Source: Sorghum bicolor
Lineage: Eukaryota > Streptophyta > Magnoliopsida > Poales > Poaceae
DNA: 64,000 nt
Direction: 5' to 3'
Assembly: GCF_000003195.3 (NCBI RefSeq)
Contig: NC_012879.2
Location: 20,608,647-20,672,646 of the forward strand
Part shown: one piece after another, positions 19,901 through 63,879 of the stretch
Numbering within the stretch: the first letter of the stretch is position 1
Layout of the letters: the number at the start of each line of letters is the position of its first letter
The notes under the pieces: generated by a model
Seen by the model: the letters and a program-made list of their open reading frames with translations, nothing else
What the model was told of the DNA's origin: nothing
Databases searched by the model: none
Program-made: the position numbers and the translations under genes

Positions 19901-20170
19901 TTTTGCCTTGTTTCCGGCCTGATTTTTGTGATGTTTCCATTTCATCTCATTTGCTTTAGGAGAGATACTAAAAGTCTGTAAGCTTGAACAACAAAAGAGA
20001 AAAAAAGGCAAGCAATAGAGCATGGAAGAAGAAATCGTGGCTCCCAACAGCTAAGCTCGCCCAGGTGTTGCGCAATCAATCTGCAGTTTGCCAGATAACC
20101 AGCCGGAGCCCCTTACACAATCTCTCCACTAGCTACTAGTATCTGGCATGCATGGGACAAGTGACAAACA
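16935..20170 (+). repeat. Higher-order tandem repeat upstream of MFT
   Basis: A unit of about 600 bp occurs about five times. The anchor block TTTCATCTCAC..GCTTTAG lies near 16998, 17655, 18262, 18893 and 19938, each followed by GAGCATGGAAGAAGAAAT-like sequence and by GAGCCCCTTACACAATCTC. Copies 1 and 3 share TTAACTAATGGTTTGAAGG and TGAGAATTTGTAGAGTAATG. Copies 2 and 4 share ACATACTTGGGACAATAA and ACATATTCGACAGAAGC. The real period is therefore an A-B dimer of about 1.25 kb; the fifth, A-type copy ends about 100 bp before the MFT TATA box. Copy 4 carries a LINE insertion. Confidence 0.7.
19113..19650 (+). mobile_element. 5'-truncated L1-type LINE
   Basis: An open frame (19116-19541) contains the zinc-binding C-terminal region of plant LINE reverse transcriptases (zf-RVT type): C..C spacing in YHCVLCFLAVEEDLSHLFFHC followed by ..ACW and a Trp-rich tail. 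The 3' end, GGGATCAAACCCTTTCTGTTTCCTC followed by six A, resembles LINE 3' ends. It interrupts copy 4 of the upstream repeat: sequence left (GGGACAATAAGGTGA) and right (TTCATATATGGTTCGAAGG) is contiguous in copy 2. Target duplication not resolved. Confidence 0.65.
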
Positions 20171-28429: not shown

Positions 28430-30616
28430 TGAAAGATCTAGGCCTGTATTTGGGTTTTGTTAATTAATGACAACTCTTGTGGACTAACCTTTCAACTCAA
28501 GTGTGTGAAGGAAAAGTTGGTTTAGTTCACAACGGAAGATGGACATCGACATCATTTGATTGATAGCATGTTGGAATGCTCAAATCAACATGGCAAACAA
28601 GTGAAGACCAAAGCAAGATTTGGCTTCGATGGACCGGTTGCGACGCAATGGTGAAGGGTAAGCTAATGGGCTTGGCGCCGATGGACTTAGGCGAAGGTGA
28701 AGGGCAAGCTAGTGAGCTTGGCTCCGAAGGACCGAAGCAACGGTGAAGAGCAAGTAAGGCTAAGGTTGATGGACTTGGATGCTTTGTGATGGTTTGAGTG
28801 ATCCACATCATATTTGAGGACGAAGCCAAAGACAAATTGATCATATCAAGTGGCTTTGTCAACATGTCGGCTTGTGCAAGGCAAAGGTATGAAACATAGG
28901 TTGTTTCATTTCACCGGACATAAGGTGTTTTAGAGAAGATTCAAATGGCCGGATTTAGGATAGATAGCCGTACTATTAAGAGGGCCAAATATGCCTTGCA
29001 TTGCGGTCATCTAGTGCCACTTGTGAGTTCTAACGTTGAGATACGATCAGTGTTGAAGTGGCAGTTTTACAAAAACTTTATGAAAAATGATTTGCCTAAA
29101 AGCTAACTAGTGGCAAGTTGAACGGTTTTCTCTTTTGAGAAATCATTTATTGGTGTTGGCTTTTCGTGATAAAAGGTTTTTGAGAAGCGCTTTTATCTAA
29201 CCGTTTTATGCGTTGGAACACTCCATTGTTATGGGATGCTTGCTCAAAGTATTGGAGAAGATGCGCTTGTGGAAGTGGTTTCTGGGCAAGGGCGGACTAT
29301 CTGTTGTTACGGGCGTGGACTGTCCGCGGGCCAATCCTAGGAAACCAGGCAGTTTCTGATGGTTCTATAGTTAACTTTCACGTAGACGGCGGACAGTCCG
29401 CGCCTGTAAGGGCAGACAGTCCGTAGGTATTTTTTCGTGGAACCAAACAGATTGTTTTTCAATCTGCTCTGGGCTGACTGCGTGACCGTGGACAGTCCGC
29501 GCCTGTAAGGGCGGACAGTCCGCGGGTCATTTTCCTCGGCGAGCAGAGTTGCTGGACTTCCTGTCCAGGGGTTTGTTTTTCAGCGGCGGACTGTCCGCGC
29601 CCTGTAGGGCGGACTGTCCGTGGTTCAGCAGTTTGAACCCAACGGCTAGTTGAATTTAATCGCGGACTGTCCGGGGTTTCTACTGCGGACTGTCCGCGAG
29701 TCGCGAATCAGAGCATAACGGCTAGTTTTGTGGGGCTCCTCTATATATAGTTGGATGCCCGGTTGGTGAGGGCTCTCTTGGCCATTTTTACAGCATACTC
29801 TTTGGGAGAGCTCCTCTCTAGCACCTCCTCTCACACCCTTTGCTTAGTGTAACATTTGCAGAGTTGAGTGTGCTCACTAGAGCGGATCCTTGCGTGAGAG
29901 TTTACTCGTGGCACTAGGTGGTTGTTGTGCAAGTGTGGTTGTTTATTACTCTTGGAGTTTGCCGGCTCCTAGACGGCTTGGTGATTGTCTTCGTGAAGCA
30001 TGCAAGAAGCTTTGTGTGGTGCTCCAAAGTTAGCTTTGTGAGGGGCTATCGAGCTCATCCCCGCCGGAGGAAGGCGAAGAGCATCTCTAGTAAAATTGAG
30101 GCTTGTGTGGGTGTCTAGTTGATTCGTCCGACACAAGTTTAGAGCTCACGTGGAGCCTACCTAGTGAGGTAGTCCGAAGCTTGCGGGCTTGGAACTAACA
30201 AGACGAGCGGCAATCCTAGAACTCGCCTCAACATGGACTAAGTGACCGGCAAGTCACCGAACCACGGAAAAACATCATGTGTCATCCTCTCCATTGTGGT
30301 TTGCCTATCGCAACACAAGCTTATTTTATTGATATGTATACTTTGTGCTTGTGTTGATTATGCTTGAGCTCTTTGTCTACTTCATGATCACTAGTATGCT
30401 TAGTTGATACATTGTGTTTTCAATAATTCATATTGTGAAAAGTATCTTGATCTTGCTTTAGCTCTTCATATTAAGGTTGCTTGCTTTCTAGATAGAGGGG
30501 TGAAGTTGTAGCTAGAACGCTAATTCTCTTCTGTATTTAAATTGTTTTTGCGCTTGCTCTTAATTTTTTAGAAATGACTATTCACCCCCCCTCTAGTAGG
30601 CCATCTCGATCCTTCA
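28430..30616 (+). repeat. Element D 5' LTR (2,187 bp)
   Basis: TGAAAGATCTAGG..TTCA. TATATATAG at 29742-29750. Between about 29285 and 29700, upstream of the TATA box, are ten copies of a GCGGAC(T/A)GTCCGC palindrome, several in pairs separated by CCTGTAAGG or CCTGTAGG. Frames read across the palindromes are not genes. Confidence 0.9.
29285..29700 (+). promoter_or_regulatory. Palindrome array in U3 of element D
   Basis: Ten GCGGACTGTCCGC-like sites, the most regular at about 29388, 29510, 29584 and 29684. Position (40-460 bp upstream of TATA) and dyad symmetry suggest binding sites for a dimeric regulator. Sirevirus LTRs are known to carry palindromic motifs; the protein bound is not shown by the sequence. 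Confidence 0.6.
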
Positions 30617-30618
30617 AG

Positions 30619-30630
30619 TGGTATCAAAGC
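30619..30630 (+). other. Primer binding site, initiator tRNA-Met (element D)
   Basis: TGGTATCAAAGC, two bases after the LTR. Confidence 0.8.
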
Positions 30631-30668
30631 GACAGTCTCTCTTTTGTGGACTTCACCGACCCGAGAGG

Positions 30669-32354
30669 ATGGCGACTTATGGGTTAGATGTTGAGTGTCC
30701 ACACATTTTTGATGGCACACACTTTACAAGTTGGAAAGATTGGATGATGAACAATTTTAAATTCATTAGCCCTCAATTATTGTGGATTGTGGATGTCGGC
30801 TTTTCTTTTGCATTGGATAAAAAGAATGCAACCCAAGCGCAAAGGAAGTGTCTATATCTCGATTGCCAAGCTACTAACATTTTCTATCAATCTATGGATG
30901 ATAACATATTTGGTGAAATCATGGACTTGACAAGTGCTCATGAAATTTGGTTTCATCTAAATAAGAAGTATGGGATGACCTCCAATAATATTGATGGAGA
31001 ATATGAAAAGATGGAAGATCATGAGAAGATAGTGAATGATGATGTTGAGCTCATTCATGACATGAGGGTTGTGAAGGAATGCTCCATCTCAAGCTCAAGT
31101 GATGAAATTGAAATATCAACCACAAGCTCACTTGAAAACAATGATGATTACTCATGTTCCGTGGCAAATGATGATTCTACAAGCCCATCTACATCACCTC
31201 TTTGTCATATGTCTAATGATGACACAAAGGTAAAACTTGATAGTGATGTCGTTGCCCATGCTTACACATATGATGAGCTTGTAGATGTTGTTAAAGGAAT
31301 GTCTCTTTATGTTGAAGAAATAGAAACCAAAATGACAAACTTGGAACATGAAAATCACAATTTAAGGAAATCATATGATTGTTCCGAACATTTGCTTGGT
31401 AAATTTGTTTATAAGCTTGTGACCTTAAGCTTGACTCATGAGATTCTTTGCCTTAAACATAAGAAGCTTAAAATTGACCATAAATCTCTCATTGAAAGCA
31501 TTTCCAAAGAAGACACTAAAATTGATGAGAGCTCATCATATGAGTTGGATGGTCAATTACAATGTGTTGCTAACTCTTGTGATGAAGGCTATAAAAATGT
31601 ATCCACCTCTAGTGATGATTTATTAGAAATGCCTTGTTCTTCAAATTCGGATATATGTTTTTCTTCTATGGATTGTGAGACTAACAATGTAGAAGAAAAC
31701 AATGAGTCAAATGATGAAGTGAAGAACTTGAGTATGGATGGGCATGTAATAGAAAAAGTGACACACAAGCAAATGATGGAAAGTCACAAGAAGTATGGCA
31801 ACATTAATGGTATTGTGTACAACAACACAAATATCAAAGGCAAAAGATGGGGCAAGAAAACTTATGAGAGAGAAATGAGAAGACTTGAAGAAGAAAAGCT
31901 TTCTCATTATATGTGTTTCAAGTGCCACAAGATGGGACACCTAGCCTCAAGTTGTCTAAGCAAGAAAGAAAAGATGCCACAAGACTCAAGTGAAGATGAG
32001 TCAACATTCTCCCATGAAGAAGCAAATGTCAATCACAAGGTTGATAACAAGATGGGAAGGAAGAAAACTAGAAGAGGAGGAAGAAGAAGAAATTGGTAAA
32101 ATAATTTCTCCTCCGATGAGTACTATCAAGATCACTACAAGAAACACTTTGTCAAAAGTTGTCTCAAAGGTAGCATTCCTAAGCCAAGCTCAATTCATGA
32201 TAATAACTTGCTTAGGAAGGATGGAAATGGTACCAGAAAGGTAACAATTGCTAATCATTCCATTATACATGCAAAGGCCAATTGGGTGCCCAAGCATGAA
32301 TTGACTAACATGAGAGGACCCAACGGTGGTTGGGTACCATCAAAATTTGAATGA
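30669..32354 (+). pseudogene. Element D copia-type Gag
   Basis: Start at ATG 30669 (MATYGLDVECPHIFDGTHF); the open frame upstream belongs to the leader. N-terminal copia Gag core (about residues 1-125: FDGTHFTSWKDWM, QATNIFYQSMDD, SAHEIWFHLNKKYG), a long acidic Ser-rich middle with a coiled-coil-like stretch (about 205-300), and a CCHC zinc knuckle CFKCHKMGHLASSC (about 417-430). A single in-frame TAA (32097) separates this from a C-terminal tail in the same frame ending at 32354. Gag packages the RNA; it is not followed by pol. Confidence 0.8.
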
Positions 32355-36140: not shown

Positions 36141-38295
36141 TGTAAGATCTAGGCCCGTATTTGGGTTTTGGTAATTAATGACAACTCTTGTGGACTAACC
36201 TTTCAATTCAAGTGTGTGAAGGAAAAGTTGGTTTAGTTCACAAGGGAAGATGGACATCGACATCATTTGATTGATAGCATGTTGGAATGCTCAAATCAAC
36301 ATGGCAAACAAGTGAAGACCAAAGCAAGACTTGGCTTCGATGGACCGGTTGCGATGCAATGGTGAAGGGCAAGCTAATGGGCTTGGCGCTGTTGGACTTA
36401 GGCAAAGGTGATGGGAAAGCTAGTGAGCTTGGCTCCGAAGGACCGAAGCAACGGTGAAGAGCAAGTAAGGCTAAGGTTGATGGACTTGGATGCTTTGTGA
36501 TGGTTTGAGTGATCCACATCATATTTGAGGACGAAGCCAAAGACAAATTGATCATATCAAGTGGCTTTGTCAACATGTCGGCTTGTGCAAGGCAAAGGTA
36601 TGAAACATAGGTTGTTTCATTTCACCGGACATAAGGTGTTTTAGAGAAGATTCAAATGGCCGGATTTAGAATAGATAGCCGTACTATTAAGAGGGGAAAA
36701 TATGCCTTGCATTGTGGTCATCTAGTGCCACTTGTGAGTTCTAACATTGAGATACGATCAGTGTTGAAGTGGCGGTTTTACAAAACCTTTATGAAAAATG
36801 ATTTGCCTAATAGCTAACCGGTGGCAAGTTGAGCGGTTTTCTCTTTTGAGAAATCGTTTATTGGTGTTGGCTTTCCGTGATAAAATGTTTTTGATAAGCG
36901 CTTTTATCTAACTGTTTGATGCGTTGGAACACTCCATTGGTATGGGGTGCTTGCTCAAAGTATTGGAGAAGATGCGCTTGTGGAAGTGGTTTCTGGGCAA
37001 GGGCGGACTGTCTGCTGTTGTGGGCGCGGACTGTCCGCAGACCAATCCTAGGAAACCAGACAGTTTCGGGTGGTTCTGCAGCTGACTTTCGCGTAGACGG
37101 CGGACAGTCCGCAGGTATTTTTTTGTGGAACCAAACAGATTGTTTTTCAATCTGCTCGGGGCTGACTGCGTGACCGCGGATAGTCCGCGCCTGTAAGGGC
37201 GGACAGTCCGCGGGTCATTTTCCTCGGCGAGCAGAGTTGCTGTCCAGGGTTTTGTTTTTCAGCGGCGGACTGTCCGCGCCCTGTAGGGCGGACTGTCCGC
37301 GGTTCAGCAGTTTGTACCCAACGGCTAGTTGAAGTTAATTGCGGACTGTCCGGAGTTTCTACTGCGGATTGTCCGCGTGTCACGAATCAGAGCATAACAG
37401 CTAGTTTTGGGGGGCTCCTCTATATATAGTTGGATGCCCGGTTGGTGAGGGCTCTCTTGGCCATTTTTACAGCATACTCTTTGGGAGAGCTCCTCTCTAG
37501 CACCTCCTCTCACACCCTTTCCTTAGTGTAACATTTGGAGAATTGAATGTGCTCACTAGTGCAGATCTTTGCGTGAGAGATTACTCGTGGCACTAGGTGG
37601 TCATCGTGCAAGTGTGGTTGCTTATTACTCTTGGAGTATGCTGGCTCCTAGACGACTTGGTGATTGTCTTCGTGAAGCACGCAAGAAGCTTTGTGCGGTG
37701 CTCCGAAGTTGGCTTTGTGAGGGGCAATCGAGCTCATCCCCGCCGGAGGAAGGTGAAGAGCATCTCTAGTAAAATCGAGGCTTGTGTGGGTGTCTAGTTG
37801 ATTCGTCCGACTCAAGTTGAGAGCTCACATGGAGCCTACCTAGTGAGGTAGTTCAAAGCTTGCGATCTTGGAACTAACAAGAGGAGCGGCAATCCTAGAA
37901 CTTGCCTCAACATGGACTAAGTGACCGGCAAGTCACCGAACCACAGAAAAACATCGTGTGTCATCCTCTCCATTGTGGTTTGCCTATCTCAACACAAGCT
38001 TATCTTATTGTTATGTATACTTTGTGCTTGTGTTGATTATGCTTGAGCTCTTTGTCTACTTCATGATCACTAGTATGTTTAGTTGATACATTGTGTTTTC
38101 AATAATTCATATTGTGAAAAGTATCTTGATCTTGCTTTAGCTCTTCATATTAAGGTTGCTTGCTTTCTAGATAGAGGGGTGAAGTTGTAGCTAGAACGCT
38201 AATTCTCTTCCGTATTTAAATTGTTTTTGCGCTTGCTCTTAATTTTTTAGAAATGACTATTCACCCCCCCTCTAGTCGGCCATCTCGATTCTTCA
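36141..38295 (+). repeat. Element D 3' LTR (2,155 bp)
   Basis: TGTAAGATCTAGG..TTCA. TATATATAG at 37421-37429. Nine palindromes (about 37002-37380), one fewer than the 5' LTR. Small differences from the 5' LTR along its length, a few per cent, imply an old but not ancient insertion. Confidence 0.9.
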
Positions 38296-38300
38296 GTAAG

Positions 38301-41277
38301 TAAGAGGTGAGATTGTGTGATTCCACAAATTTACCCATTCCACTATATCTTGCATAAGTGCTAACATGCCAGGATCCAATTCGAACGTTCGTGGTGGTCG
38401 ATATGGAGAAAAAGAAACATCAGTTTCGCGGGCTAAGTTACGCCAACTACAAAACTCACTAGTGGAGGCCATGGAGAAGATGTTTGATGAACGTCTTCCT
38501 GTGGTGCGCGGTCGGGCTAAACAACATAGCTCAGCCAACTCTCGCCGTTGTCTCTTTGGCCATAGTGGAAAACATGGAGGAGGTGCTCATGGGCATAGCA
38601 TTCGCCCCCTTATGCTCATTGATGATGAAGACTACTGTGTGTCCCCCAAAAGAAAAATTCAGCAAGAGTGCCACCAACCAAAATTGAGTGAGAGAAATCA
38701 AAAGGAAAAGATGAGACATTCCACCATACATGAGAAAGAGTGGCACCAACCAAAATTCAGTGAGAGAGTTCAAAATAAGAAGAGAGATTCCACAATATTT
38801 AAGGAGAGCCACAAAATTCTATGTGAGAGTGATCCACAAAAATTGAGAGAAAAAAGAGATGAATCATGTGAGGAATTATTTACTTCTAACATCATAATAC
38901 CTTCTATTCTTGTTCCTTTTGCGATGCAGGTTCATGAAGAAAATGATGTTGTGAATTATGATCAGCCCCCAATCTTTGATGAGGAAGAACAAGTGATTGT
39001 CAATGACAACGATACACATGCATATGTGGCTTCACAAGACGTTGAAGTAATTGTGCATTAAAACCTATGTGAGAATGAGAGCCACATTGCCAAAATGAGA
39101 GAGAGTGAAAACAAAAGTCAGTTGAGTGATTCCACCCACTATAAGGTTGAGAGTGTCAACAATGAGAGTGTGAAGGATACACCACAGAAAAATAGATATT
39201 TAGAATGCAGGCCAAGTGAGGATATCTTTGAAACTAACACTTTCATCTCTACTTCTAGTTTTGTCTTTTCAAATGTGCAGGTTGGTGATGAGAATAGGGA
39301 AGAGATGGATGCTCACGACAACACCATACTTGTTGAGAGAAATGAGAAGGTAGCCATTTAACTAAACCCATTGTGTGTTGCCCAAAACCTGAACCATGAC
39401 ATGAATAATGGTAAGATTACAGAGGTGCAATCCTTAGTACTTGCACCACCAAAAAGTCTAAAAGTTATTAAAAATAAATCAGATTTGAATTTGCAAAATA
39501 AAATGGCAAGTAATTATGATAATACATATGGTTCAAATGGGATTAACCATACACGAAATATTTGCACTGATTTGATTATTGCACATGTTCACCCGTGTGC
39601 TGAAATTTTGCAAGTTGATAACCAAAGTTCAATCATACATGATCTTTTCTATGGTTTGATATGGTTCATATACATGATGATTTGCATTCATATGTGTGAT
39701 ACGATGCATTATGTTTCAATGCTCATACATCTTAGAGATGGCTGCACATTTCTCAACCCTTTAGTTAATTGATCAAAACCATCTAAGATCAACAATGAAG
39801 GTAAAAATTCAGAGATTCAAACCTTGGTACATGTAGAATCATTGGATTTAAAATACATGAAAAATAAATCAAGTCTAATTGTTCAACACATACTGAGTAC
39901 TTGTGATAACACTGTTTCAGTAATAAAACATAACCAAAACATTTGTGCTGATTTGACTGGAACTCATGTTGATACAAGTACTAAATTTCTTTTTGATGAT
40001 AGTCTTTGTGCTTTGAATGATCCTTGCAGCACTTCATATAGCAACCAACAACACCTCATCCAGTCGGTTACTTGTGATGATTTGTTTAAAAGGATATCTC
40101 CTCTTGAATGTTTGTGTTATACTATGCTTAACATGCCTATCAATATTCAACAAATGCTTGAGAAAATTTTTAACATAACATCTTTGAGTTCATTGAATAC
40201 TACTCATAGCTTCCAGTTTACAATTGTCTTGATTGGAGAACATGTTGTAGATACATTCTAGGTTTATGCAATTTGTGTAACATATAACAAACTTGCTGAT
40301 TTAGAATAAAAAATGTTGAGAGATAAACAAAGTGAGAAATCTTTTAAGATGCAGCAAATGCTTGGTGCTTATGGGTTCAATCAATTCATGTTGTCAGCAT
40401 GTTCGTACCATCCACTTAAAGTTAGAAATCTTGTGCAAAGCAAAGCCTATACACCGAAAAGTTGTTCATCCACACCTTGGAGCATTGAGTTTAAAAATGA
40501 TACTTCTAAGCCCTTGAATAAATTTTGCTGCCACAATCATTTTTGGAATAACATTGGTTCTCAACATCCATTTGATGAAAAGTTTGATCTTCTAAAGATA
40601 AAACATGATAACATGAATCAAATGATTGGATTGGAAGAAATTTTTGTGCTTCCATCCTCTAAACTATTTGCAGGTTCACCAAAGTTGAGAGAATGTTTCT
40701 TACATGGAAAAGGAAATAATGCAAAAATAATTCATAATGGAACAAATGAACAAAACAAAAGGAATGATTATTGAAATTATCAAGTACATCCACCCTCTAT
40801 TTTGTCTAAGCTGTTTTCAGGTAAACAAAAGTCGTGGATGACTTTTCTTGAAGGGAGGGAGGATGATGAGACCATACCAAGGCAATTAACATTCAAGCAT
40901 CCACTCAAGGTGAAAGCTAAACTTAATTCCAAATCATTTAGGTTTCCACATACAAGGCTACTACTTGGTTTATATGATTATAGATTCAAACACTTTGCTA
41001 TCATGGAACAAGAAGATTGCGATGTTATCACAACATTACAAATTGATGGCCTAGCACAACTCTTTGGATCAGAAGAGTTAGAGTCGAGGACGACTCCTTT
41101 TCAAGAGCAGGAGGATGATATGACCACGCTAGTAAGCAAGATGTCACAAGCTCCAAGTCAAGCTACAACTACTCAAGTTTTACCTACACCGGCACCAGCC
41201 CAAGTCATCGATGGACCGGTTACACGTAGTCGTGCAAAGATGCTACAACAAGAGGTCCACGCGCTACTTTGTGAGAT
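38301..41277 (+). pseudogene. Element E single long ORF (~975 codons), six nonsense changes
   Basis: From ATG 38366 to about 41277 one frame is open except for six stops (at about 39059, 39359, 39770, 40259, 40307 and 40772); there is no frameshift. The N-terminus is Gly/Arg-rich (MPGSNSNVRGGRYGEKE). The middle is repetitive: a block starting KITEVQSLVLAPP (near 39412) recurs about 134 codons later as KNSEIQTLVHVES (near 39815), including ICTDLI..HVHP / ICADLT..HVDT. The C-terminus has the grass gypsy polyprotein tail GPVTRSRAKMLQQEVHALLC. No protease, RT or integrase motif is seen, so E is probably a non-autonomous element whose ORF replaced pol. Function unknown. Confidence 0.55.
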
Positions 41278-42014
41278 CAAAGTAAACTCATAAACCAAAG
41301 AACAATAAAACAAAGAACTTACTAGAATTTAGAAGTTGAAATACTGAAGAATCCTAGGAGCAAGCCTCGGGTTAGGAGACTTGATCCCGCAGGTACAACC
41401 TTAGAGTAGACACCGACAGGCCGGGCATCCTCCAATCTACACCTCCACTCTATCTCTCTCAATCTAGAAGAACTAATTATAATCTCACATTGGATGCTAA
41501 GCCCAAGGAGATTGGAACCCTAGAGGGACCTCTCTCTCTGAATCCTCTCTGGAAAATATGCTAATGAATAATGGGATTGCCCTCCTCCAGGGGCCAGGTG
41601 CCTTGCTTATATAGCCCTTTCAAATAAACGTGGGCCGTCGGATCAAACCGACCATAATTGAGCGGTTTTCCTTGATCCTTAGAGGCGATGGAGCATAATC
41701 TGCGAGACTCGTGCTGATTAGCCACCATAGGGGGGCGAGCGCCCTACTGTTGGGCTCGCTCGGCCTACCGCTCGTTCGTGTTGCTTCTGGACTCTTCTAG
41801 ACCGAGGAAAATTGGTGCACACGTTAATATCTCTATGTAAACCCGACGTGTGGATCTTTACTCCATATTTCCTAATAACCCCCTGCAGAAATAGATAAAC
41901 AACAAAACTCATGGAATTCTATCAAATCAAACCCTAATTCTAGGTGTTGCTTGCATATGGATCCTTTTCCTTGTTTATTTGATGATTAAAATTAATACTT
42001 AAGAATCCTCAACA
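41278..42014 (-). repeat. Element F 3' LTR, truncated
   Basis: Matches the part of the 5' LTR at about 49333-50110; the remaining ~475 bp (R/U5 side) are absent. It has one copy of the 21-bp GGGCGCCC unit where the 5' LTR has three. Confidence 0.8.
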
Positions 42015-43330: not shown

Positions 43331-43960
43331 TCAGTGGTGCTCTAGCTCCTTTATCCTATCAGTGGCCCTGGAAGGGTCGCGTCTAAGGTTGAGCATAGTA
43401 GTGTTCAAGTTAGAGACCTGCCTATTAAGGAAGTTAACAGAGGACTGGAGCTCCATCATTAGCTTGTCTGTCCCACGGACTTCCTTATCTAAGTCGGATA
43501 CAGTCTTACGGCGCTTAGGAGGTGTCTCAAAGGAGTTGAGGGCGTGCTTTCGAGCTTCCTTCGGTGGGATGAAGCGAACCTTCGCTGCTCTGTTTCCCTC
43601 GAAGTAGGGCCTCTCTTCCTCTGTGGTGTAGTGGACGTTGCTGATCTCGCCGCTCCTGTTGGTCTTGACACCTACAACCCTCTCATTGGGCTTGGGCGGC
43701 AGGACCCTCGTGCCGGCTGGCACCTTGACAATCGCCTCCTGCTTGGCTGATGGCCCATTAAGAAGAAGGAGTTGTGGTGGCGCGGTGAGAACTGGTTGAG
43801 GGTACTAGGATTAGGTGGAGCTGCGCTGGCGTGATGACATGGCTGCTGGCTGTCGCTCTGTGTTGGCTGGCATGAGCGCGTAGGCATCTGGATCTTCCTT
43901 AGGCTTCTTATTAAGGTTGCAGGGAACGATCTTCCAATCTGGGTTGAACTCGTCGGCCAT
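43331..43960 (-). pseudogene. Element F ORF downstream of integrase (210 codons)
   Basis: ATG at 43960, stop at 43331, one frame with two close in-frame stops around codons 50-52. The N-terminus (MADEFNPDWKIVPCNLN) is clearly homologous to the ORF starting at 63880 in element C. The C-terminal third is coiled-coil-like (VSDLDKEVRGTDKLMMELQS). No signal peptide or membrane segment was seen, so nothing supports an envelope function despite the env-like position. A conserved TATA/TGACGTCA block lies upstream (44025-44048). Function unknown. Confidence 0.6.
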
Positions 43961-44024
43961 TGGAGCAACGAGAGACTAAGAAAGCTCTAATTGAGGAAGG
44001 AAATAATGAATTGGTGTTGAAAGC

Positions 44025-44048
44025 TGACGTCAGAGGTATGTTTATATA
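44025..44048 (-). promoter_or_regulatory. Internal TATA + TGACGTCA block before the F downstream ORF
   Basis: On the minus strand TATATAAA (44048-44041) is followed by TGACGTCA (44032-44025) and, 65 bp later, by the ATG (43960). The surrounding sequence (GCACTTTTGACCCC before, TTTCAACACCAAT after) is nearly the same in element C at 63783-63806. TGACGTCA is a classic bZIP site. Confidence 0.55.
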
Positions 44049-44335
44049 GGGGTCAAAAGTGCTTCTAGAATATTCCACGGGATATATCCCGCCGCCAAAC
44101 TTGATTAACAACCCATCCGTAGGGTTTTTTGGATAGAGATGGGTGAGATTATCGTAATGGAAAAAGACGGCGGTGAGAGGGGCCAGGGGCAGGGCGCCCG
44201 CCCTAAAGCCTAGGGCGCCCGCCCTGGGCCTGCCTCCTCTGTCTGCCCGCTCGCTCGTGAGTGTTTCTAGAAGTATTATTATCCCGAAAAAAATATATAC
44301 ATGGCCCAAAAACATCAGATTAAAAAGGTTGGGAT
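44049..44335 (-). other. Intergenic spacer of element F with GGGCGCCC repeats
   Basis: Non-coding spacer after integrase. Contains two AGGGCG-CC-CGCCCT inverted repeats at about 44190-44226, the same motif as in the LTR U3. Confidence 0.55.
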
Positions 44336-45620
44336 CTAATTCTCAATTGGAAGGTAAAAATGGATCACGCCTATTTCCTCTAATTCTTTATTGGGTTCTA
44401 AAAATAATTTAAGACGTTGACCATTTACCTTGAATAACGTACCTTCGTCATTTTGAAGTGTGATAGCTCCGTGGGATGATGAATTGATTACCTTGTATGG
44501 TCCTTCCCATTTACTCCGGAATTTTCCATGCCCAAAAAGCTTCACCCATGGAATTAAAAAGTAATACCTTATCTCCGAGTGAGAACTCCTTCTTCTTGAT
44601 TCTCTTGTCATGCCATCTTTTGACTCTATCTTTGTAGATCTTCGAATTATGATATGTTTTCTCTCGCCATTCTTCCAATTCTGATAACTGTATTCTTCTA
44701 TGATCTCCAGCAACATCTAGGTCCATATTCCATCTCCTTATGGCTAAGTGTGCTTTGAACTCTAGTTCAACAGGTATGTGGCAAGTCTTCCTGTACACCA
44801 ATTGGTATGGAGACATCCCAATTGGGGTCTTGTATGCAGTCTGGTATGCCCAGAGTGCATCGGGTAACATGTCCTTCCATGCCGTTCCCATCTCATTTAC
44901 TGTCTTCTGAAGAATGTTCTTGATTTGCTTGTTGGAAGTCTTTGCTTGGCCACTTGTCTGAGGATGATAGGGGGTAGCGACGTTGTGACAGATTCCATGT
45001 CTTGATAGATAGTGCTCGAACCGTTTGTGGATGAAATGTGATCCTCCATCACTTATCACTACTCTGGGGACTCCAAATCTTGGAAATATGATTTCTTCAA
45101 ACATCCTCTTTGAACTTACATTTTCGGCGTGCTTGCATGGTAGGGCCTCTACCCACTTGGAGACGTAGTCAACCGCCACCAAGATGAACTCACACTTCTT
45201 TGATGGGGGAAATGGACCCATGTAGTCTATTCCCCAGACATCAAAGAGCTCTATCTGAAGATTGTTGGTGAGTGGCATGGCATCTCTTGTATTTATGTTT
45301 CCGTGTCTTTGACATAACCCACATCTTCTGTTATATTCCTTCGTGTCTTCATACATTGTAGGCTAGTAGAATCCACATTGCCAGATCTTTGAATGTGTAT
45401 GGAATGCTCCATGATGACCTCCATATGGTGATGAATGGCATCTGTCAATGATCTTCCATCCTTCCTCAGTGGTCACACATCTCCTGAGTAAGCCATCAGA
45501 GCATACTCGGAAGAGGTATGGCTCATCCCATATGTGTGAACGACTTTCTTGAATAAGCTTTTTCTTGTTTGCTCCTGGTGGTTCATACCCTGAAACCATA
45601 AAATTAACAATATCTGCATA
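44336..45620 (-). pseudogene. Element F integrase
   Basis: Frames 45599-45363, 45356-44511 and 44716-44336. Zinc-binding region: H..H..C..C in HHGAFHTHSKIWQCG and [10 protein letters not shown]. Catalytic core: D in [16 protein letters not shown] in [10 protein letters not shown]; the third residue, Glu in copy C (SGQAETSNKQ), is Lys here ([10 protein letters not shown]). The C-terminal GPY-type region (KWEGPYKVINSS) is in a shifted frame; no chromodomain, as expected for the Athila group. The 45360 break is one TAG (ACAATGTAGGCTAG region), and a frameshift lies near 44550. Confidence 0.8.
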
Positions 45621-46210
45621 CTAGGGGTCAGACCTGTTGACTCCGTAGAGCATGTCATCCTGGAGTGAATCATTGATGGGTGTTTCCTGTGGATTCTTAA
45701 AGTGCATTCTAGACAAGTGATCAGCAACAGAATTTTCTACTCCCTTTTTATCTTTTATTTCTAATTCAAATTCTTGGAGTAATAAGATCCATCTAATTAA
45801 GCGAGGTTTAACATCTTTTTTAGTGAGCAGATATTTCAATGCAGCATGATCAGTGTAATCAATTATTTTAGCTGCAACTAAATAAGATCTAAATTTATCA
45901 ATGGCAAAGACAAGAGCCAAAAGCTCGTTTTCAGTGGTTGCATAATTAAGTTGAGCTCCCGTCAAAGTTTTACTAGCGTAAGGAATTGCATGATGCTTCT
46001 TATCTTTAGTTTGTCCCAAAACTGCCCCCATAGCATAATCACTAGCATCACACATAATTTCAAAAGGCAGCGACCAATCAGGGGGTTGAATGATTGGTGC
46101 AGAGATGAGTGCATTCTTTATTAATTCAAAAGTTGTGAGACATGCATCATCAAATTCGAAAGGAGCATCCTTGGCTAGCAAAAAAGAGTGAGTGGTCTAG
46201 CAATGAATGA
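45621..46210 (-). pseudogene. Element F RNase H
   Basis: Frame 46181-45621: [18 protein letters not shown] (first Asp), [20 protein letters not shown] (Glu), [13 protein letters not shown] (third Asp; IVYTDH in C), [13 protein letters not shown] at the end. RNase H removes the RNA strand during reverse transcription. The catalytic residues appear present. Confidence 0.8.
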
Positions 46211-47119
46211 AAAATCTTTTATGAATCTGTGATAAAAACTAGCATGGCGAAGAAAGCTTCGAATTCCTTTTACATTTACAGGTGGAGGTAGTTGTTCAAT
46301 TACTTCAATTTTAGCTTTGTCTACCTCAATACCTCTTTCAGACACTAGGTGTCCCAGCACTATTCCTCCCTAACCATAAAATGACATTTTTCCCAATTGA
46401 GGACTAAGTGCTTTTCTTCACATCTTTGCAAAACCTTGTCTAAGTTTTGAATACAATTATCAAAAGTTTTTCCATATACAGAGAAATCATCCATGAAAAC
46501 TTCCATAATCTCTTGAATCATATCAGAAAATATAGACATCATGCATCTTTGAAAAGAAGCTGGTGCATTACATAGCCCAAAAGACATCTACGATAAGCGT
46601 ACGTTTCGTAAGGGCATGTAAAAGTGGTTTTGCTTTGATCATCGGGATGGATCGGGATCTGGTGGTACCCTGAATATCCATCTAAGAAACAGAAGAACGA
46701 GTGGTTCGCTAACCGCTCTAACATCTCATATGTAAAGGGTAAAGGAAAGTGATCCTTTTTCGTGGCTTTGTTTAGTTTTCTATAGTCTATGCACATCCGC
46801 CACCCTGTGAGGTGCGTTGCGGAATTAGTTCATTCTTTTCATTCATAACAACAGTCATGCCTCCCTTCTTAGGCACAACTTGAACAGGGCTCACCCACTC
46901 ACTATGCGGCACAGGATATATAATCCCTGCATGCAGCAACTTTATAACTTCCTTTTTAATTACTTCCTTCATCGCGTTGTTAAGTCTACGTTGGGGCTCT
47001 CGAGAAGGTGAAATAGAAGGATCTGTCGGAATACGATGGGTACAAATCATAGGACTGATTCCTGTAAGATCTTGGAGTGAGTAGCTAAATACTAAGTGAT
47101 GTTTTTCTAGAACAGTCAT
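46211..47119 (-). pseudogene. Element F reverse transcriptase, frameshifted
   Basis: Frames 47119-46787, 46796-46539, 46587-46360 and 46360-46175. Motifs in order: SEWVSPVQVVPKKGGM, CIDYRKLNKATKKDHF, FFCFLDGYSGYHQI (catalytic Asp), MSFGLCNAPASFQRCM, VFMDDFSVYG (catalytic DD), LVLNWEKCHFMV, then the connection IEVDKAKIEVIEQLPPP. At least three 1-2 base frameshifts. Confidence 0.85.
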
Positions 47120-47970
47120 TAATCGCAGAGTTTGCTCCTGAGTGAGTTTATCACTGATGATTATAGGAAACTCTGGATTATTATTTAGGAAAGCATAGGC
47201 AAGACCGGGTGGTAAAGGTTTAAGCTCTATGGGAGGTCTAGGTGTTTCTGCAAACTCATCTAAGGGTTCAGTTCAGAAGGTTCAGCCTCCTCTTCTATGA
47301 ATAAAGGAGCTTCTTCCTCTAAGTCTGGTTCATTTAAAAGCTCTAGAGATGCAACTTTTACCTCTTCCATAGGATCAGGCAGAAGATATGATTCAGTCTT
47401 ATTATTCAAAGAATGAGAAAATGTTATTGGAAATTTGAAATATTTTCCAAAAGAAATGTGTAGCTTTCTAGTTTGACCTTCATAAAGGAGTCTTCTAAAA
47501 GGTTGTCCTATCAACTGGTCGAAGTCCCATGTATCAAAGATATAAAAGTTCAAATGAACCATGGAGCCTTCTACCATAAAGGGTAGGACATTCACAATTC
47601 CAAGACTGGGGTCTAATTGTCCCGAAGAATCCTTTATGAACTTTGTTGTGGGGGTTAAAACTAATTTTCCAAATAATTTATGTGCAAAAGCTTTAGACAT
47701 GATGTTGATCCCCACAACAGGATTATATAGAGCATCAAATTGATCAGAATCATAAGCACGACATACAGGTATAGGAGGTGTATCCAAACGGATCTCTTCA
47801 GAGGAAAGCTCTGACTCCTCCAACCATTCCCTACTCGTGATTGATATAAGCTCTCTCAATTGATATTCATTTGTTAAACAAATGCTAGAATGGCCGCTTT
47901 GGGGTTTGTCTATAGAATGGTAATTTGAAATATTTCCAAAATCGACAAAAAGATCAGATTCTATATCCAA
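47120..47970 (-). pseudogene. Element F aspartic protease and linker
   Basis: Part of the frame 48300-47260. DALYNPVVGINIMSKAFAHK stands at the protease active-site strand, with Asn-Pro-Val-Val-Gly instead of Asp-Thr/Ser-Gly; VHLNFYIFDTWDFDQLIGQP is the second conserved half. An acidic linker (EEEAPLFIEEEAEP) leads to RT. A frameshift lies near 47262. Confidence 0.7.
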
Positions 47971-48728
47971 CATGAAATCAGGTGGTGGAATTTCTTCCTT
48001 TTGTGCCTCAGAACCTGGGATTGCTGAAGCAGATGGAAAATTTGGCAGAGTGTCCACTTCTGTTTTGTAGGTTTCATCATGGAGGGTATTATCTATCTCA
48101 GCTTCTAGGATTCTATCTAAGATCGCCCTAGCTTCATGAGTTGGGATAGAAAAGAAAGAACCTCTAGACATTGTATGCAGCAATTGTTTATGATTTTTCG
48201 AAAGACCTCGAAAGAAATGTAAAAGAAGAATAGTGTCTTCAAGATTAAGTTTTGGACTAGATTCTAAAAGCTCAGAAAAACGTTTCCAGGATTTACCCAA
48301 AGTTTCATTTTCTTTTTGTTTAAAAGATAGAACTTCGAGTCTAAGATTGGCGATACGGTCGAGGGAATAAAAATCTAGACAAAAGTTGCCTCGTAAAACT
48401 CCCCATTCACCTCGTTGTTGACTTACCTTCTATCTATACCATTGTCTAGCTTCTCCCTTTAAAGAAAACAGAAAAAGCTTCCAACGTAAAGTTTTATCAG
48501 AAATGCCTTCATTGCGAAGACAATCGCATGTTTGCTCAAAATCTCTAATATGAACCAAGGGTTTTCGTCTTCCTTTCCCAAAAAAGATAGGTTCTCAATC
48601 ATGGCAATTAACCTCAAACTTAACCTATACTGGGATGTTTGGATAGGCTGTGATGACTCCCATGGTAAAAGGTCAGTTTCCGAAGGTGTTGCAAATTGAT
48701 AAATTGATTTAGAATCTTGGTTTTCCAT
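47971..48728 (-). pseudogene. Element F Gag
   Basis: Start at ATG 48728 (MENQDSKSIYQFATPS); the frame breaks near 48560 and resumes in 48300-47971. Blocks QTSQYRLSLRLIAMIENLSF, GKEDENPW, LLLHFFRGLSKNHKQLL, EARAILDRILEAE. Same Gag type as A, B and C. Confidence 0.75.
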
Positions 48729-48833
48729 AAGGTAGAGTAAAGAAAATAAAGAATTTAAAAAGATAAGAAAAGATAAAAGTATAGATACAAGCTAGTAGCA
48801 AGACTCAAGGTTATCTCAGCAAACCGTCTTTCC

Positions 48834-48850
48834 CCCCAGCAACGGCGCGA
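48834..48850 (-). other. Primer binding site, tRNA-Asp, two mismatches (element F)
   Basis: Minus strand TCGCGCCGTTGCTGGGG against the expected TGGCGCCGTTGCCGGGG. Confidence 0.75.
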
Positions 48851-48858
48851 GAAATGCT

Positions 48859-50110
48859 TGTTGATATTTGGTAACGCAATCAAGAAATGATCTGCAAGCG
48901 TACGGATATCGGTGAGCACTTCACCTGGGAGGTTATCTAGAGTATCATATTTATATTTTACCACTAGGGGAAAGCGTGCATCTGACTAACCAAATCTATT
49001 ACTACTAACCTTTAGGCTACAACCACTATGATTTGATGTGAGTGATGTATAGAGGAGACTACAACTGCACCCTCGTTCTAACCTTGGTAAGGATGATCTA
49101 CTGTTCTATTAGGGAGGCTTACGGAATCTAGACACCACAGAGGATGTTCAACCCGCACATATAAACCCTACCGATCCTGCTAATGGGATTATGGGCTACA
49201 AAGGTAGCTACGGAAATGTCACGTTCGTCGCTACTACCACGATCCGGCTAGACAGAGGATATCTATGAGTATCCTAGCCCAAATACCACGTTTACGCCAG
49301 CGATGATTACTCTAAACTCTACACGAATATATCAAAGTAAACTCATAAACCAAAGATCAATAAAACAAAGAACTTACTAGAATTTAGAAGTCGAAATACT
49401 GAAGAATCCTAGGAGCAAGCCTCGGGTTAGGAGACTCGATCCCGTAGGTACAACCTCGGAGTAGACACCGACAGGCCGGGCTTCCTCCGATCTACACCCC
49501 CACTCTATCTCTCTCAATCTAGAAGAACTAATTCTAATCTCACATTGGATGCTAAGCCCTAGGAGATTGGAACCCTAGAGGGACCTCTCTCTCTGAATCG
49601 TCTCTGGAAATATGCTAATGAATAATGGGATTGCCCTCCTCCAGGGGCCAGGGGCCTTGCTTATATAGCCCTTTCAAATGAACCTGGGCCGTTGGATCAA
49701 ACCAACCTTAATTGAACGGTTTTCCTTGATCCTCAGAGGCGGTGGAGCATAATTTGCGAGACTCGTGCTGATTGGCCACCATAGGGGGGCGGGCGCCCTC
49801 GGGAGTAGGGCGGGCGCCCTCGGGAGTAGGGCGGGCGCCCTACTGCTGGGCCCGGTCGGCCTCCCACACATTCGTGTGGCTTGTGGACTCTTCTAGACCA
49901 GGGAAAATTGGTGCACATGTTAATATCTCTATGTCAACCCGACGTGTGGGCCTTTCCTCCATATTTTCGGATAACCCCCTGCAGAAATAGATAAACAACA
50001 AAACTCGTGGAATTCTGTCAGATCAAACCCTAATTCTAGGTGTTGCTTGCATATGGATCCTTTTCCTTGTTTATTTGATGATTAAAATTAATACTTAAGG
50101 ATCATCAACA
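48859..50110 (-). repeat. Element F 5' LTR (1,252 bp)
   Basis: TGTTGA..TCAACA. TATA (GGCTATATAAGC on the minus strand, near 49659-49670). Upstream of it, at 49784-49842, is a 21-bp unit with GGGCGGGCGCCCT in three tandem copies. Confidence 0.85.
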
Positions 50111-58065: not shown

Positions 58066-59287
58066 TGTTGATGGTTCTTAAGTATCAATTTTAATTATCA
58101 AATAAACAAGAGAAAGGACGCAAACAACACCTAGAATTAGGGTTTGATCTGATAGAATTCCACGAGTTTTGTTGTTTATCTGTTTCTGTAGGGGGTTATA
58201 GGGAAATAAGGAAGAAAGGCCCACATGTCGGGATTACATAGAGATATCAACGCACCGCGCAATTTTCTACCATCTAGAAGACTCCAGAAGCCACAGGAAC
58301 GAAGCGGAGGCCGAACGGGGCCTGGCCCAGGGTGCCCGCCCTGAGGACCAGGGCGCCCGCCCCCTCCTAGACTCCAATCAGAACTCTTTTCACGGATCAA
58401 GCTCCACCGACCTAAAGGATCAAGGATAACCATTCAATCAATGTCGGTTTGATCCGACGGCTCACGTTCACTTGAGGGGACTATAAAACCAGACTCTCTG
58501 GCCCCAAGAGGAGACAAGTTCATCATAGACTTGAGAGGCGCCCTTGAAGGAATACCTCTTCTCTAAATAAAATTTCTTTTAGGCTTAGCATCCAGTATGA
58601 GTAGAATTAGATGTTCTAGTTTCTACTAGATTGAGAGAGATAGAGTGGAGGTGTAGATCGGAGGAAGCCCGACCTGTCGGTGTCTACTCTGAGGTTGTAC
58701 CTGCGGGACCAAGTCTTCTAACCCGAGGCTTGCTCCTAGGATTCTTCAGTGCTTCGACTTCTAAATTCTAGTAAGTTCTTGCTTTATTGTTCTTTGGTTT
58801 ATGAGTTTACTTTAATCTCTTCGCGTGGAGTTTAGAGTAATCATCTCTAGCGTAGACGTGGTGTTTGGGCTAGGATACTCATAGATATTCCCTGACTAGC
58901 TGGACCGTGGCAGTAGCGAGGAACGTGACATTTCCGAGTTACCTTTGAAAACCATATCTCGTTAGCAGGAAGGATAGGGTTTATAGGTGCGGGTCGAACA
59001 TCCTCTGTGGTGTCTAGATTCTGTAAGCTTCCCCATTAGAACAGTAGATCATCCTTACCAAGGTTAGAAAGAGATTTCGGTTGCAGTCTTCTCTATTTAT
59101 CACTCACATCGAGAAACATTCTTTGTAGCCTAAAGGTTATTAGTAATAGACCGGGTTAGTCAGATGCACGCTTTCTCCTAGTGGTAAAAAAATAAATACG
59201 ATACTCTGGATAACCTCCCGGGTGAAGTGCTCACCGATATCCGTGCGCTTGCGGATCAATTCCTTACTGCGTTCCCAAATATCAACA
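58066..59287 (+). repeat. Element C 5' LTR (1,222 bp)
   Basis: TGTTGA..TCAACA. TATAAAA at 58482-58488. Two GGGCGCCCGCCC-type inverted repeats at 58327-58362 upstream of it. Confidence 0.9.
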
Positions 59288-59295
59288 AGCATTTC

Positions 59296-59312
59296 TGGCG
59301 CCGTTGCCGGGG
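59296..59312 (+). other. Primer binding site, tRNA-Asp (element C)
   Basis: TGGCGCCGTTGCCGGGG, a perfect match to the plant tRNA-Asp(GTC) 3' end complement, 8 bp after the LTR. Confidence 0.85.
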
Positions 59313-59421: not shown

Positions 59422-60253
59422 ATGGAAAACCAAGATTCTAAATCAATCTACGAATCTACAATCCCTTCAGTAACTAACCTTTTACCATGGGAGTCATCAC
59501 AGCCTATCCAAACATCCCAGTATAGGTTAAGTTCTAGGTTGATTACCATGATTCAAAACCTATCTTTTTCGGGAAAGGAAGACGAAAACCCTTACCATTA
59601 GAGATTTTGAGCAAACATGTGATCGTCTTCGCATTGAAGGCATTTCTGATAAGACTTTACGTTGGAAGCTTTTTCCTTTTTCTTTAAGGGGAGAAGCTAG
59701 ACAATGGTACAGTCAGAAGGTAAGTCAACAACAAGGTGAATGGGGAGTTTTACGAGCCAACTTTTGTCTAGATTTTTATTCCCTTGACCGTATCGGCGAC
59801 CTTAGACTCGAAGTCCTATCTTTTAAACAAAAAGATAATGAAGCTTTGGAAGAATCCTAGAAACGTTTTTTTGATCTTTTAGAATCTGGTCCAAACCTTA
59901 ATCTTGAAGACCCTGTTCTTTTATTTCACTTTTTTCGAGGTCTTCAAAAAGATTATAAACAAATGCTACATACAATGTCTAGAGGTTCTTTCTTTCGCAT
60001 TACTGATGATGCTAGAGTGATCCTAGATAGAATCCTAGAAGCTGAGATGGATAATACCCTTCATGATAAAACCCACGAAGCCGAAGTAGACACTCTGCCA
60101 AATTCTCCATCTACTTTAGCTATCCCAAGTTCTGAGCCACAAAAGGAAGAAATTCCACCACCGAACTTCATGCTGGATATAGAATCTGATCTTTTTGCCG
60201 ATTTTGGAAACATTTCAAACTACCATTCCATAGACAAACCCCAAAATGGCTAG
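59422..60253 (+). pseudogene. Element C Gag, frameshifted
   Basis: Start ATG 59422 (MENQDSKSIYESTIPS). Frameshift near 59597 after GKEDENPYH; the second frame carries IRDFEQTCDRL, LRWKLFPFSLRGEARQWY, LFHFFRGLQKDYKQML and ARVILDRILEAEMD, with one TAG at about 59858. Gag core as in F. Confidence 0.75.
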
Positions 60254-63498: not shown

Positions 63499-63879
63499 AG
63501 CCCGACCTTTTTAATCTGACATTTTTGGGTCACACATATTTTTTCCTAATAAGTTTTGCATCTAGAAACACGCTCGAGGAAGCGGGCCCACAGAGGGGCC
63601 AGACACAGGGTGAGCGCCCTGATGAAGAGGGCGGGCGCCCAGCCCCTGTCCCCTCTTGGTCCCGGTTTCCTCCGTTATGGAAAAAACACTTATGGTAATC
63701 CGAATAATCCCTCAGATGGAAAGTTTAGCACGCCCATCGACGGGAGCAACCCGAACAACCCCTAGGGGCACTTTTTGACCCCTATATAAACAAACCCCTG
63801 ACGTCAGTTTTCAAACACCAATCCACCCAAGCCTTCTCTTCTTCTTCAATTAGAGCTTGTTTAGACCCTTGCTGCTCCA
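63499..63879 (+). promoter_or_regulatory. Internal promoter-like region of element C
   Basis: A non-coding spacer with GGGCGGGCGCCC at 63630-63641 (same motif as LTR U3), then CACTTTTTGACCCC, TATATAAA (63783-63790), TGACGTCA (63799-63806) and a pyrimidine-rich leader to the ATG at 63880. The TATA-to-ATG distance is about 95 bp, suitable for a short 5' UTR. The block is conserved in F (44025-44048). Confidence 0.55.

What the first reader, a model, noticed from the sequence alone, without database searches (positions are those of the whole stretch)
63783..63806. Conserved TATATAAA + TGACGTCA block before the post-integrase ORF in Athila-type elements
Elements C (63783-63806) and F (44048-44025, minus) share the block CCCCTATATAAACA..CCTGACGTCAG at the same distance before the ATG of their third ORF, in a spacer that is otherwise diverged. 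A TATA box plus a bZIP palindrome makes an internal promoter, separate from the LTR, the simplest explanation.
Basis: partly seen in the sequence, partly recalled or inferred. Interest (0 to 1): 0.75.

Follow-up and report, generated by a model that had tools for sequence, protein, structure and literature searches.

The report
Internal promoter in a plant retrotransposon
A family of jumping elements in a plant genome carries, in front of its third gene, a second promoter-like region that resembles the promoter at the element's ends, which suggests that this gene is switched on separately from the others.

Summary
The block is real and not confined to two copies. TATATAAA and TGACGTCA start 16 bp apart in both C and F. 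The host genome holds 1,362 matches with up to 2 mismatches, against 0 for the reversed pattern. Of 12 copies picked by the upstream integrase end, 12 have the block, 11 keep TATATAAA and 7 keep TGACGTCA. The TATA stretch is almost invariant (0.988 pairwise identity; 0.815 just upstream of the block).

The main new point: the spacer also holds a 21-bp-period pair of GC-rich quasi-palindromes starting about 155 and 176 bp before the TATA. In the window, matches with at most one mismatch occur only here and in this family's LTRs, where they mostly start 132, 153 or 174 bp before the LTR TATA. The LTR core also resembles the block, weakly. So the spacer looks like an LTR (U3)-type promoter for ORF3, a ~209-aa protein with no predicted membrane span.

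TGACGTCA as a bZIP site is the weakest part. No transcript was seen, and a splice-acceptor rival remains. A promoter before the third ORF is already described for Athila6A (PMC4977677); the LTR-matched layout is a variant.

The parts
63773..63807 (+). Conserved core block of element C: TATATAAA and TGACGTCA with their C-rich surroundings
   Evidence: 33 of 35 columns identical to F; 0.942 mean pairwise identity in 15 copies
63783..63790 (+). TATA box of the proposed ORF3 promoter (C)
   Evidence: TATATAAA intact in 11 of 12 integrase-anchored copies
63799..63806 (.). TGACGTCA palindrome (C); role uncertain
   Evidence: intact in 7 of 12 integrase-anchored copies
63607..63641 (.). Pair of GC-rich quasi-palindromes (63607-63620 and 63628-63641), period 21, starting 176 and 155 bp before the TATA
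   Evidence: aligned to the C 5' LTR repeats with local score 26, shuffle maximum 17 in 300
63847..63858 (+). Conserved CAATTAGAGCTT after a pyrimidine-rich stretch, 33 nt before the ORF3 ATG (leader element, or 3' splice site in the rival reading)
   Evidence: 0.978 mean pairwise identity
63880..64000 (+). Start of ORF3 of element C, cut by the window end
   Evidence: Sequence; relatives with the same N-terminus; continues in L121
44024..44058 (-). Core block of element F (TATATAAA 44048-44041, TGACGTCA 44032-44025)
44191..44225 (.). GC-rich repeat pair of element F (44191-44204, 44212-44225), starting 156 and 177 bp before the TATA
43331..43960 (-). ORF3 of element F, not intact: read in two frames (43811-43960 and 43331-43804)
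   Evidence: relatives
58066..59294 (+). 5' LTR of element C: GC repeats at 58329 and 58350, TATA core from 58481; primer binding site from 59296
48852..50110 (-). 5' LTR of element F: GC repeats at 49786, 49807, 49828, TATA core from 49668
41273..42014 (-). 3' LTR part of element F: one GC repeat at 41732, TATA core from 41614

Best explanation
The spacer between integrase and ORF3 is a second RNA polymerase II promoter that drives ORF3 on its own short mRNA. Its core is a TATA box followed by a C-rich stretch, with transcription expected to start about 30 bp after the TATA (near 63813 in C, 44018 in F). The leader of about 55-70 nt contains no ATG, so the ORF3 ATG would be the first. About 155 and 176 bp upstream lie two copies of a GC-rich quasi-palindrome with a 21-bp period. 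The LTR promoters of the same family carry the same kind of motif, mostly 132, 153 or 174 bp before their own TATA. I therefore read the spacer as a U3-like promoter module that shares a DNA-binding factor with the LTR, so that gag-pol and ORF3 can be switched together from separate starts. Shown: the sequence layout, its conservation, and the shared repeats. Inferred: promoter activity, start site, shared factor, co-regulation, and any role of TGACGTCA.
For: 1,362 block matches in the genome, reversed-pattern control 0. All 30 exact-match loci cut out have an ORF3 match just downstream; 26 of 30 also have the integrase end. In 12 copies chosen by integrase end (first 12 of 39 non-window places listed) the block is present in 12, TATATAAA intact in 11, TGACGTCA in 7, and a GC motif with at most 2 mismatches stands 154-155 or 175-177 bp before the TATA in 12. 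Mean pairwise identity in 15 copies (these 12 with C, F and L129): TATA stretch 0.988, block 0.942, GC motifs 0.915 and 0.870, their 7-nt linker 0.689, stretch before the block 0.815. GC motif to TATA: 155/176 (C), 156/177 (F) in the spacer; mostly 132, 153, 174 in LTRs. In the window, motif matches with at most 1 mismatch occur only in these LTRs and spacers. 27 of 30 block loci keep a GC motif, 26 of them with one starting 154-156 bp upstream. No ATG between TATA and the ORF3 ATG in C or F. Database proteins that read through other copies show the GC motif in two different frames at the same distance, so DNA rather than a peptide is kept. An ENV ORF promoter is reported for Athila6A (PMC4977677, passages).
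Against: No transcript, start-site or reporter data. Beyond the GC repeats the spacer does not align significantly to the LTR: local alignments recover the repeats; scores against the 4.3-kb LTR piece were reached by 19 and 21 of 300 shuffles and against the LTR of element A by 94 and 78 of 300. The LTR of element A has no GC motif. The core resemblance is weak: LTR cores score 4-6 where shown, against 14-16 for the blocks, and some unrelated TATA sites also score 4-6. In sense orientation the motif centre is GG in the spacer but CC in 20 of 22 LTR motif matches. LTR cores lack TGACGTCA. A strong splice-donor sequence exists in gag of C and F, and the leader could hold an acceptor. From C and F alone the excess conservation was modest. 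3 of 30 block loci show no GC motif. The 12 anchored copies are close relatives of C; distant subfamilies were not sampled without bias.
Confidence: 0.72

Rival explanations
1. The conserved spacer is a 3' splice region: ORF3 is expressed from an LTR-started RNA by splicing, with CTGAC at TGACGTCA as branch point, then the pyrimidine-rich stretch, and CAATTAG|AG as acceptor shortly before the ATG.
For: AAGGTAAGT, a 9-of-9 match to the donor consensus used, lies in gag at 59717 in C and 48429 in F, aligned to each other. CAATTAGAGCTT is among the best-kept stretches (0.978), 33 nt from the ATG in C and F. Splicing is reported for barley Bagy2 (PMC7264820, passages) and acceptors are predicted for Athila and Bagy2 (PMC2829016, passages). 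Athila6A is described with an intron as well as an ENV ORF promoter (PMC4977677, passages), so both may be true.
Against: It does not explain why the TATA stretch is the best-kept part or why LTR-type GC repeats stand at similar distances before it. The donor-like sequence lies in gag coding sequence and is absent from element A. Splice sites were not scored with a trained model.
Confidence: 0.15
2. The conservation only reflects recent common descent of copies in one genome; the block has no function of its own.
For: The copies are related (C 5' LTR and the LTR downstream of C are 93.6% identical). With C and F alone, block-wise column shuffles reached the observed value in 3,741 of 20,000.
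Against: Flanks in the same copies are clearly less alike (0.815-0.849 against 0.942 and 0.988). C and F differ at 42% of columns just upstream of the block. A GC motif starts 154-156 bp before the TATA in 26 of 30 loci.
Confidence: 0.06
3. The GC repeats form an RNA or DNA structure, such as a 14-bp stem with a 7-nt loop, or pairing between spacer and 3' LTR repeats in the genomic RNA, used in replication, packaging or silencing rather than transcription.
For: Each motif differs from its own reverse complement at 2 of 14 positions, and the 21-bp period leaves a 7-nt loop. In sense orientation the spacer copies are close to the reverse complement of the LTR copies.
Against: Several LTRs keep only one copy, so a hairpin of two copies is not needed. 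Similar distance to a TATA in both places fits binding sites better. No folding or covariation test was run.
Confidence: 0.07

Closest known systems
ENV ORF (internal) promoter of Arabidopsis Athila6A (PMC4977677)
   Same: Athila element with a promoter before the ORF that follows the pol genes
   Different: There the annotation of start sites draws on RNA data; the passages read here describe no LTR-like GC repeats, TATA block or TGACGTCA. Here only sequence evidence exists, and the ORF product has no predicted membrane span.
Repeated palindromic motifs (RMs) of Sireviruses (PMC2829016)
   Same: GC-rich palindromic repeats both upstream of the LTR TATA box and before the third (ENV-like) gene, taken there as support for an internal promoter
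   Different: Sireviruses are Ty1/copia, have 8-32 RM copies per element, and the authors say they could not conclusively identify an internal promoter. Here the element is Ty3/gypsy in domain order, with 1-3 copies near fixed distances from a TATA.
gene23 of the maize element Grande, transcribed from its own promoter (via the review PMC7264820)
   Same: Accessory ORF in the 3' internal region with its own promoter; its product is called nuclear in the title of the cited 2013 paper (not read)
   Different: gene23 is antisense to gag-pol; ORF3 here is in sense
Internal promoter of foamy viruses (recalled; no passage read)
   Same: A second promoter inside a reverse-transcribing element, before 3' accessory genes
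   Different: Animal retroviruses; no sequence comparison was made

Membership tests
Athila-type Ty3/gypsy elements | Domain order RT - RNase H - integrase | tested here: met
   Pfam RVT_1 in element A, RT_RNaseH in C, rve in F, in that order by aligned position; no single copy showed all three
Athila-type Ty3/gypsy elements | Primer binding site of the tRNA-Asp type reported for Calypso and Diaspora (PMC1142308, passage) | tested here: inconclusive
   TGGCGCCGTTGCCGGGG directly after the C 5' LTR at 59296 and its complement in A near 8260; that this pairs with tRNA-Asp is recalled, not computed
Athila-type Ty3/gypsy elements | Extra sense ORF between integrase and 3' LTR | tested here: met
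   ORF3, ~209 aa; 204 database relatives with E <= 0.001 for a 157-aa piece; alignment
Athila-type Ty3/gypsy elements | The extra ORF is envelope-like, with membrane spans (true of some elements only) | tested here: not met
   Highest 19-residue hydropathy 0.92 among 57 full-length relatives; no Pfam family above its curated cut-off in 4 tested; model shows one confident helix, 154-208, the rest at low confidence
Athila-type Ty3/gypsy elements | Place in the RT tree | not tested
Internal promoter of a 3' ORF (Athila6A kind) | Transcript starts mapped inside the element before the ORF | not testable with these tools
   No RNA data available
Internal promoter of a 3' ORF (Athila6A kind) | Conserved core-promoter-like sequence before the ORF | tested here: met
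Sirevirus repeated motifs | GC-rich palindromic repeats in the LTR before the TATA and before the third gene | tested here: met
   compared with PMC2829016 section 9. Here the palindrome is imperfect (2 of 14)
Sirevirus repeated motifs | Ty1/copia element | tested here: not met
   Integrase follows RNase H, the Ty3/gypsy order; so Sirevirus-like in layout, not a Sirevirus

The most novel reading that the evidence does not exclude
The element runs two promoters from one control code: LTR and ORF3 promoters share the phased GC quasi-palindromes, and the same trans-acting factor, possibly ORF3 itself (a basic protein with a long C-terminal helix and a PPKRRK-like stretch), binds both and couples ORF3 output to gag-pol output in a feedback loop.
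Probability: 0.15. Interest if true: 0.8.

Novelty: new variant of a known kind. Interest (0 to 1): 0.52.

Why it matters
How plant retrotransposons express the ORF behind integrase is argued over between splicing, readthrough and an internal promoter (PMC2829016, passages). This family gives a directly testable case: over a thousand block copies in one genome, a defined TATA, a defined start region, and LTR-matched repeats that can be tested in a reporter. The paired layout also suggests how an element could coordinate two promoters.

Tried and rejected
Viral contigs were searched for the block (0) and for integrase relatives (4 stretches matched a pattern, none confirmed), and the prokaryote genome contigs for integrase relatives (9 stretches, none confirmed): no related DNA there. 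The 14-mer CCCCTATATAAACA alone turns up by chance in viral contigs (120 stretches, scan stopped at its limit); of the 120 matches fetched, none has TGACGTCA within 20 bases after it. Rfam and tRNA scans of the window: nothing. The ORF3 fold (mean pLDDT 55.4) was too poor for a fold search. A peptide reading of the spacer was rejected: the same DNA is read in different frames in different copies. Database proteins served only as indirect evidence for other copies; they were found with queries that include the block, so their count is biased. The rearranged read P0131 was not interpreted. An ORF3-anchored search of the genome was asked for but did not complete, so more distant subfamilies were not sampled without bias.

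Full report
What was checked. C and F are two copies of one LTR element family in the window: 43840-46631 aligns to 64000-61203 at 88.5% and 46944-50110 to 61200-58066 at 85.6%. A third, more diverged copy (A, about 5.7-9.5 kb) has no match to this spacer. TATATAAA and TGACGTCA start 16 bp apart in both copies; the distance to the ORF3 ATG is 97 bp in C and 88 bp in F, not equal.

How strong two copies are. Pol is mostly 84-98% identical per 50-column window, extremes 80 and 100%; the GC-to-block stretch is 58%; the block is 33 of 35. Column shuffles of the spacer reached an equally good 35-column window in 437 of 20,000, block-wise shuffles in 3,741 of 20,000. The two copies alone were suggestive, not decisive.

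Whole genome. The genome search answered three times among many busy replies. The pattern CTATATAAACANNCCNCTGACGTCAG, up to 2 mismatches, has 687 forward and 675 reverse matches in 709 Mb, and 0 for the reversed control. The 30 exact-match loci cut out all have an ORF3 match just downstream; 26 also have the integrase end upstream. These loci were selected for the block, so they say nothing about how well the block itself is kept.

Copies chosen without the block. A search with the integrase end of C listed 40 places (40 scored of 1,751 candidates), 39 besides C itself. I fetched the 420 bases after the first 12 of the 39. All 12 have the block at the expected place, one of them (L179) with a shifted gap. 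TATATAAA is intact in 11 of 12 (L181 reads TATACAAA) and TGACGTCA in 7 of 12; two of the five failures are TGACATCA, as expected from loss of a methylated CpG (inference). With C, F and L129 added (15 copies), mean pairwise identity is 0.988 for the TATA stretch, 0.942 for the block, 0.910 for TGACGTCA, 0.978 for CAATTAGAGCTT, 0.915 and 0.870 for the GC motifs, 0.689 for the 7-nt linker between them, 0.815 between GC motifs and block, 0.849 before the GC motifs, 0.867 in the leader after the block and 0.896 at the ORF3 start. The block window ranks 9th of 384 windows of 35 columns; the best ones start at 63761-63768 and overlap it. These copies resemble C; distant subfamilies were not sampled in this way.

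The GC repeats. The motif AGGGCG-CC-CGCCCT (LTR form) or AGGGCG-GG-CGCCCT (spacer form) has matches with at most one mismatch in the window only in this family's LTRs and in the two spacers; with 2-3 mismatches a few other matches appear, two of them (51178, 52740) outside these places; 0 or 1 was expected per resampled sequence at up to 3 mismatches (10 resamplings). Repeats come at a 21-bp period. Distances from motif start to TATA are 174/153/132 (F 5' LTR), 153/132 (C 5' LTR; 152/131 by the reference point), 132 (F 3' LTR and the LTR piece at 4.3 kb), 176/155 (C spacer) and 177/156 (F spacer); the LTR of element A has no match. Over 13 LTR stretches in window and neighbourhood, 12 with a TATA match, 16 of 21 motif distances are exactly 132, 153 or 174; the others are 129 twice, 149, 157 and 167; 20 of 22 motif matches have the CC form. 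C spacer and C LTR repeats align over 46 bp with score 26, shuffle maximum 17 in 300; F spacer against C LTR scored 18 (0 of 300), against F LTR 18 (1 of 300); C spacer against F LTR 16 (4 of 300); against the 4.3-kb piece 13 and 13 (19 and 21 of 300); against the LTR of A 11 and 11 (94 and 78 of 300). In 27 of 30 block loci a GC motif is present, in 26 of them starting 154-156 bp before the TATA and in one 149 bp.

The core. LTR cores read CTATATAAGGAGACCCCCTGGCCCC, CTATATAAGCAAGGCCCCTGGCCCC or variants; the block mostly reads CTATATAAACAGACCCCTGACGTCAG. Of 97 CTATAWAW sites in 264 kb, 14 have a GC motif (at most 2 mismatches) within 185 bp upstream; these rank 1, 2, 3, 5, 6, 7, 8, 12, 15, 16, 21, 22, 24 and 25 for similarity of the following 20 bases to the internal core. 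The first three are internal blocks (scores 14-16). The LTR sites shown score 4-6, and so do some unrelated sites, so this is weak resemblance.

Other copies through proteins. Database proteins that happen to read through the spacer (11 besides the window's own, E <= 1) keep YIN-x-PLTS, the translation of the block, in 9 of 11; one is degenerate (P0127); one (P0128) is read in another frame and ends A-P-I, which fits a stop at TATATAA. The GC motif starts 156 nt before the TATA in the 7 proteins where it is seen in the first frame (two of them variants), and appears in a second frame in P0130 at 155 when the 2-nt offset is added. Pairwise identity is 0.861 for the block peptide against 0.565 upstream in 9 sequences. 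The queries contained the block, so this set is biased.

ORF3. 204 relatives of a 157-aa piece have E <= 0.001 (120 listed). Of the 69 listed ones that keep the N-terminal motif, 68 start with M and one with V. Full-length relatives are about 209 aa, with no strong hydrophobic span (57 examined), no Pfam family above cut-off (4 tested), and one confident C-terminal helix in a model of otherwise low confidence. 50 of 57 carry a PPKRRK-like stretch; that this is a nuclear signal is inference. It is not envelope-like by membrane spans. ORF3 of F is broken.

Mechanism. I read the spacer as a U3-like promoter for ORF3. Shown: layout, conservation, repeats shared with the LTR. Inferred: activity, start site, shared factor. 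TGACGTCA as a bZIP site is the weakest step: it is lost more often than the TATA, the LTR has no such site, and it would lie downstream of the TATA.

Splicing rival. AAGGTAAGT lies in gag at aligned places in C and F but not in A, and the leader has a pyrimidine-rich stretch before CAATTAG. In Athila6A both an intron and an ENV ORF promoter are described, so the two are not exclusive.

Literature. Ten searches: Athila with internal promoter, subgenomic, transcriptional start site, ENV ORF, splicing, palindromic motif, TATA box, long-read transcripts; env-like ORFs with internal promoter; TGACGTCA with LTR retrotransposon. Read in passages: PMC4977677, PMC2829016 (and its section 9), PMC1142308, PMC11410651, PMC7264820; the rest seen as listings. 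In these listings and passages I saw no report of LTR-matched GC repeats before the third ORF of a Ty3/gypsy element; most subscription papers are not held, so this is not proof of absence.

Noticed in passing
window 59717 (+) and 48429 (-): Splice-donor-like AAGGTAAGT inside gag of C and F, absent from A
   Followed up: partly
window 28430-30616 and 36141-38295: A 2.2-kb direct repeat at 93.9% identity, flanking an ORF with a weak copia-type gag match at 30618-32099 (below Pfam's cut-off); looks like the LTR pair of another element
   Followed up: no
window 16959-20137: Several overlapping diverged direct repeats (75-79% identity)
   Followed up: no
L143, upstream of the block: Copy with F-type ORF3 (90% identity) and intact block, but no GC repeats and no integrase end found upstream
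   Followed up: no
protein P0131: Database protein that seems to join an ORF3-like start, a gag-like piece and the block peptide; a rearranged copy or chimera
   Followed up: no
window 58329-58363 and 63607-63641: In element C the first GC repeat has the same AGGGTG variant in LTR and spacer, as if the two places change together; one case only
   Followed up: partly
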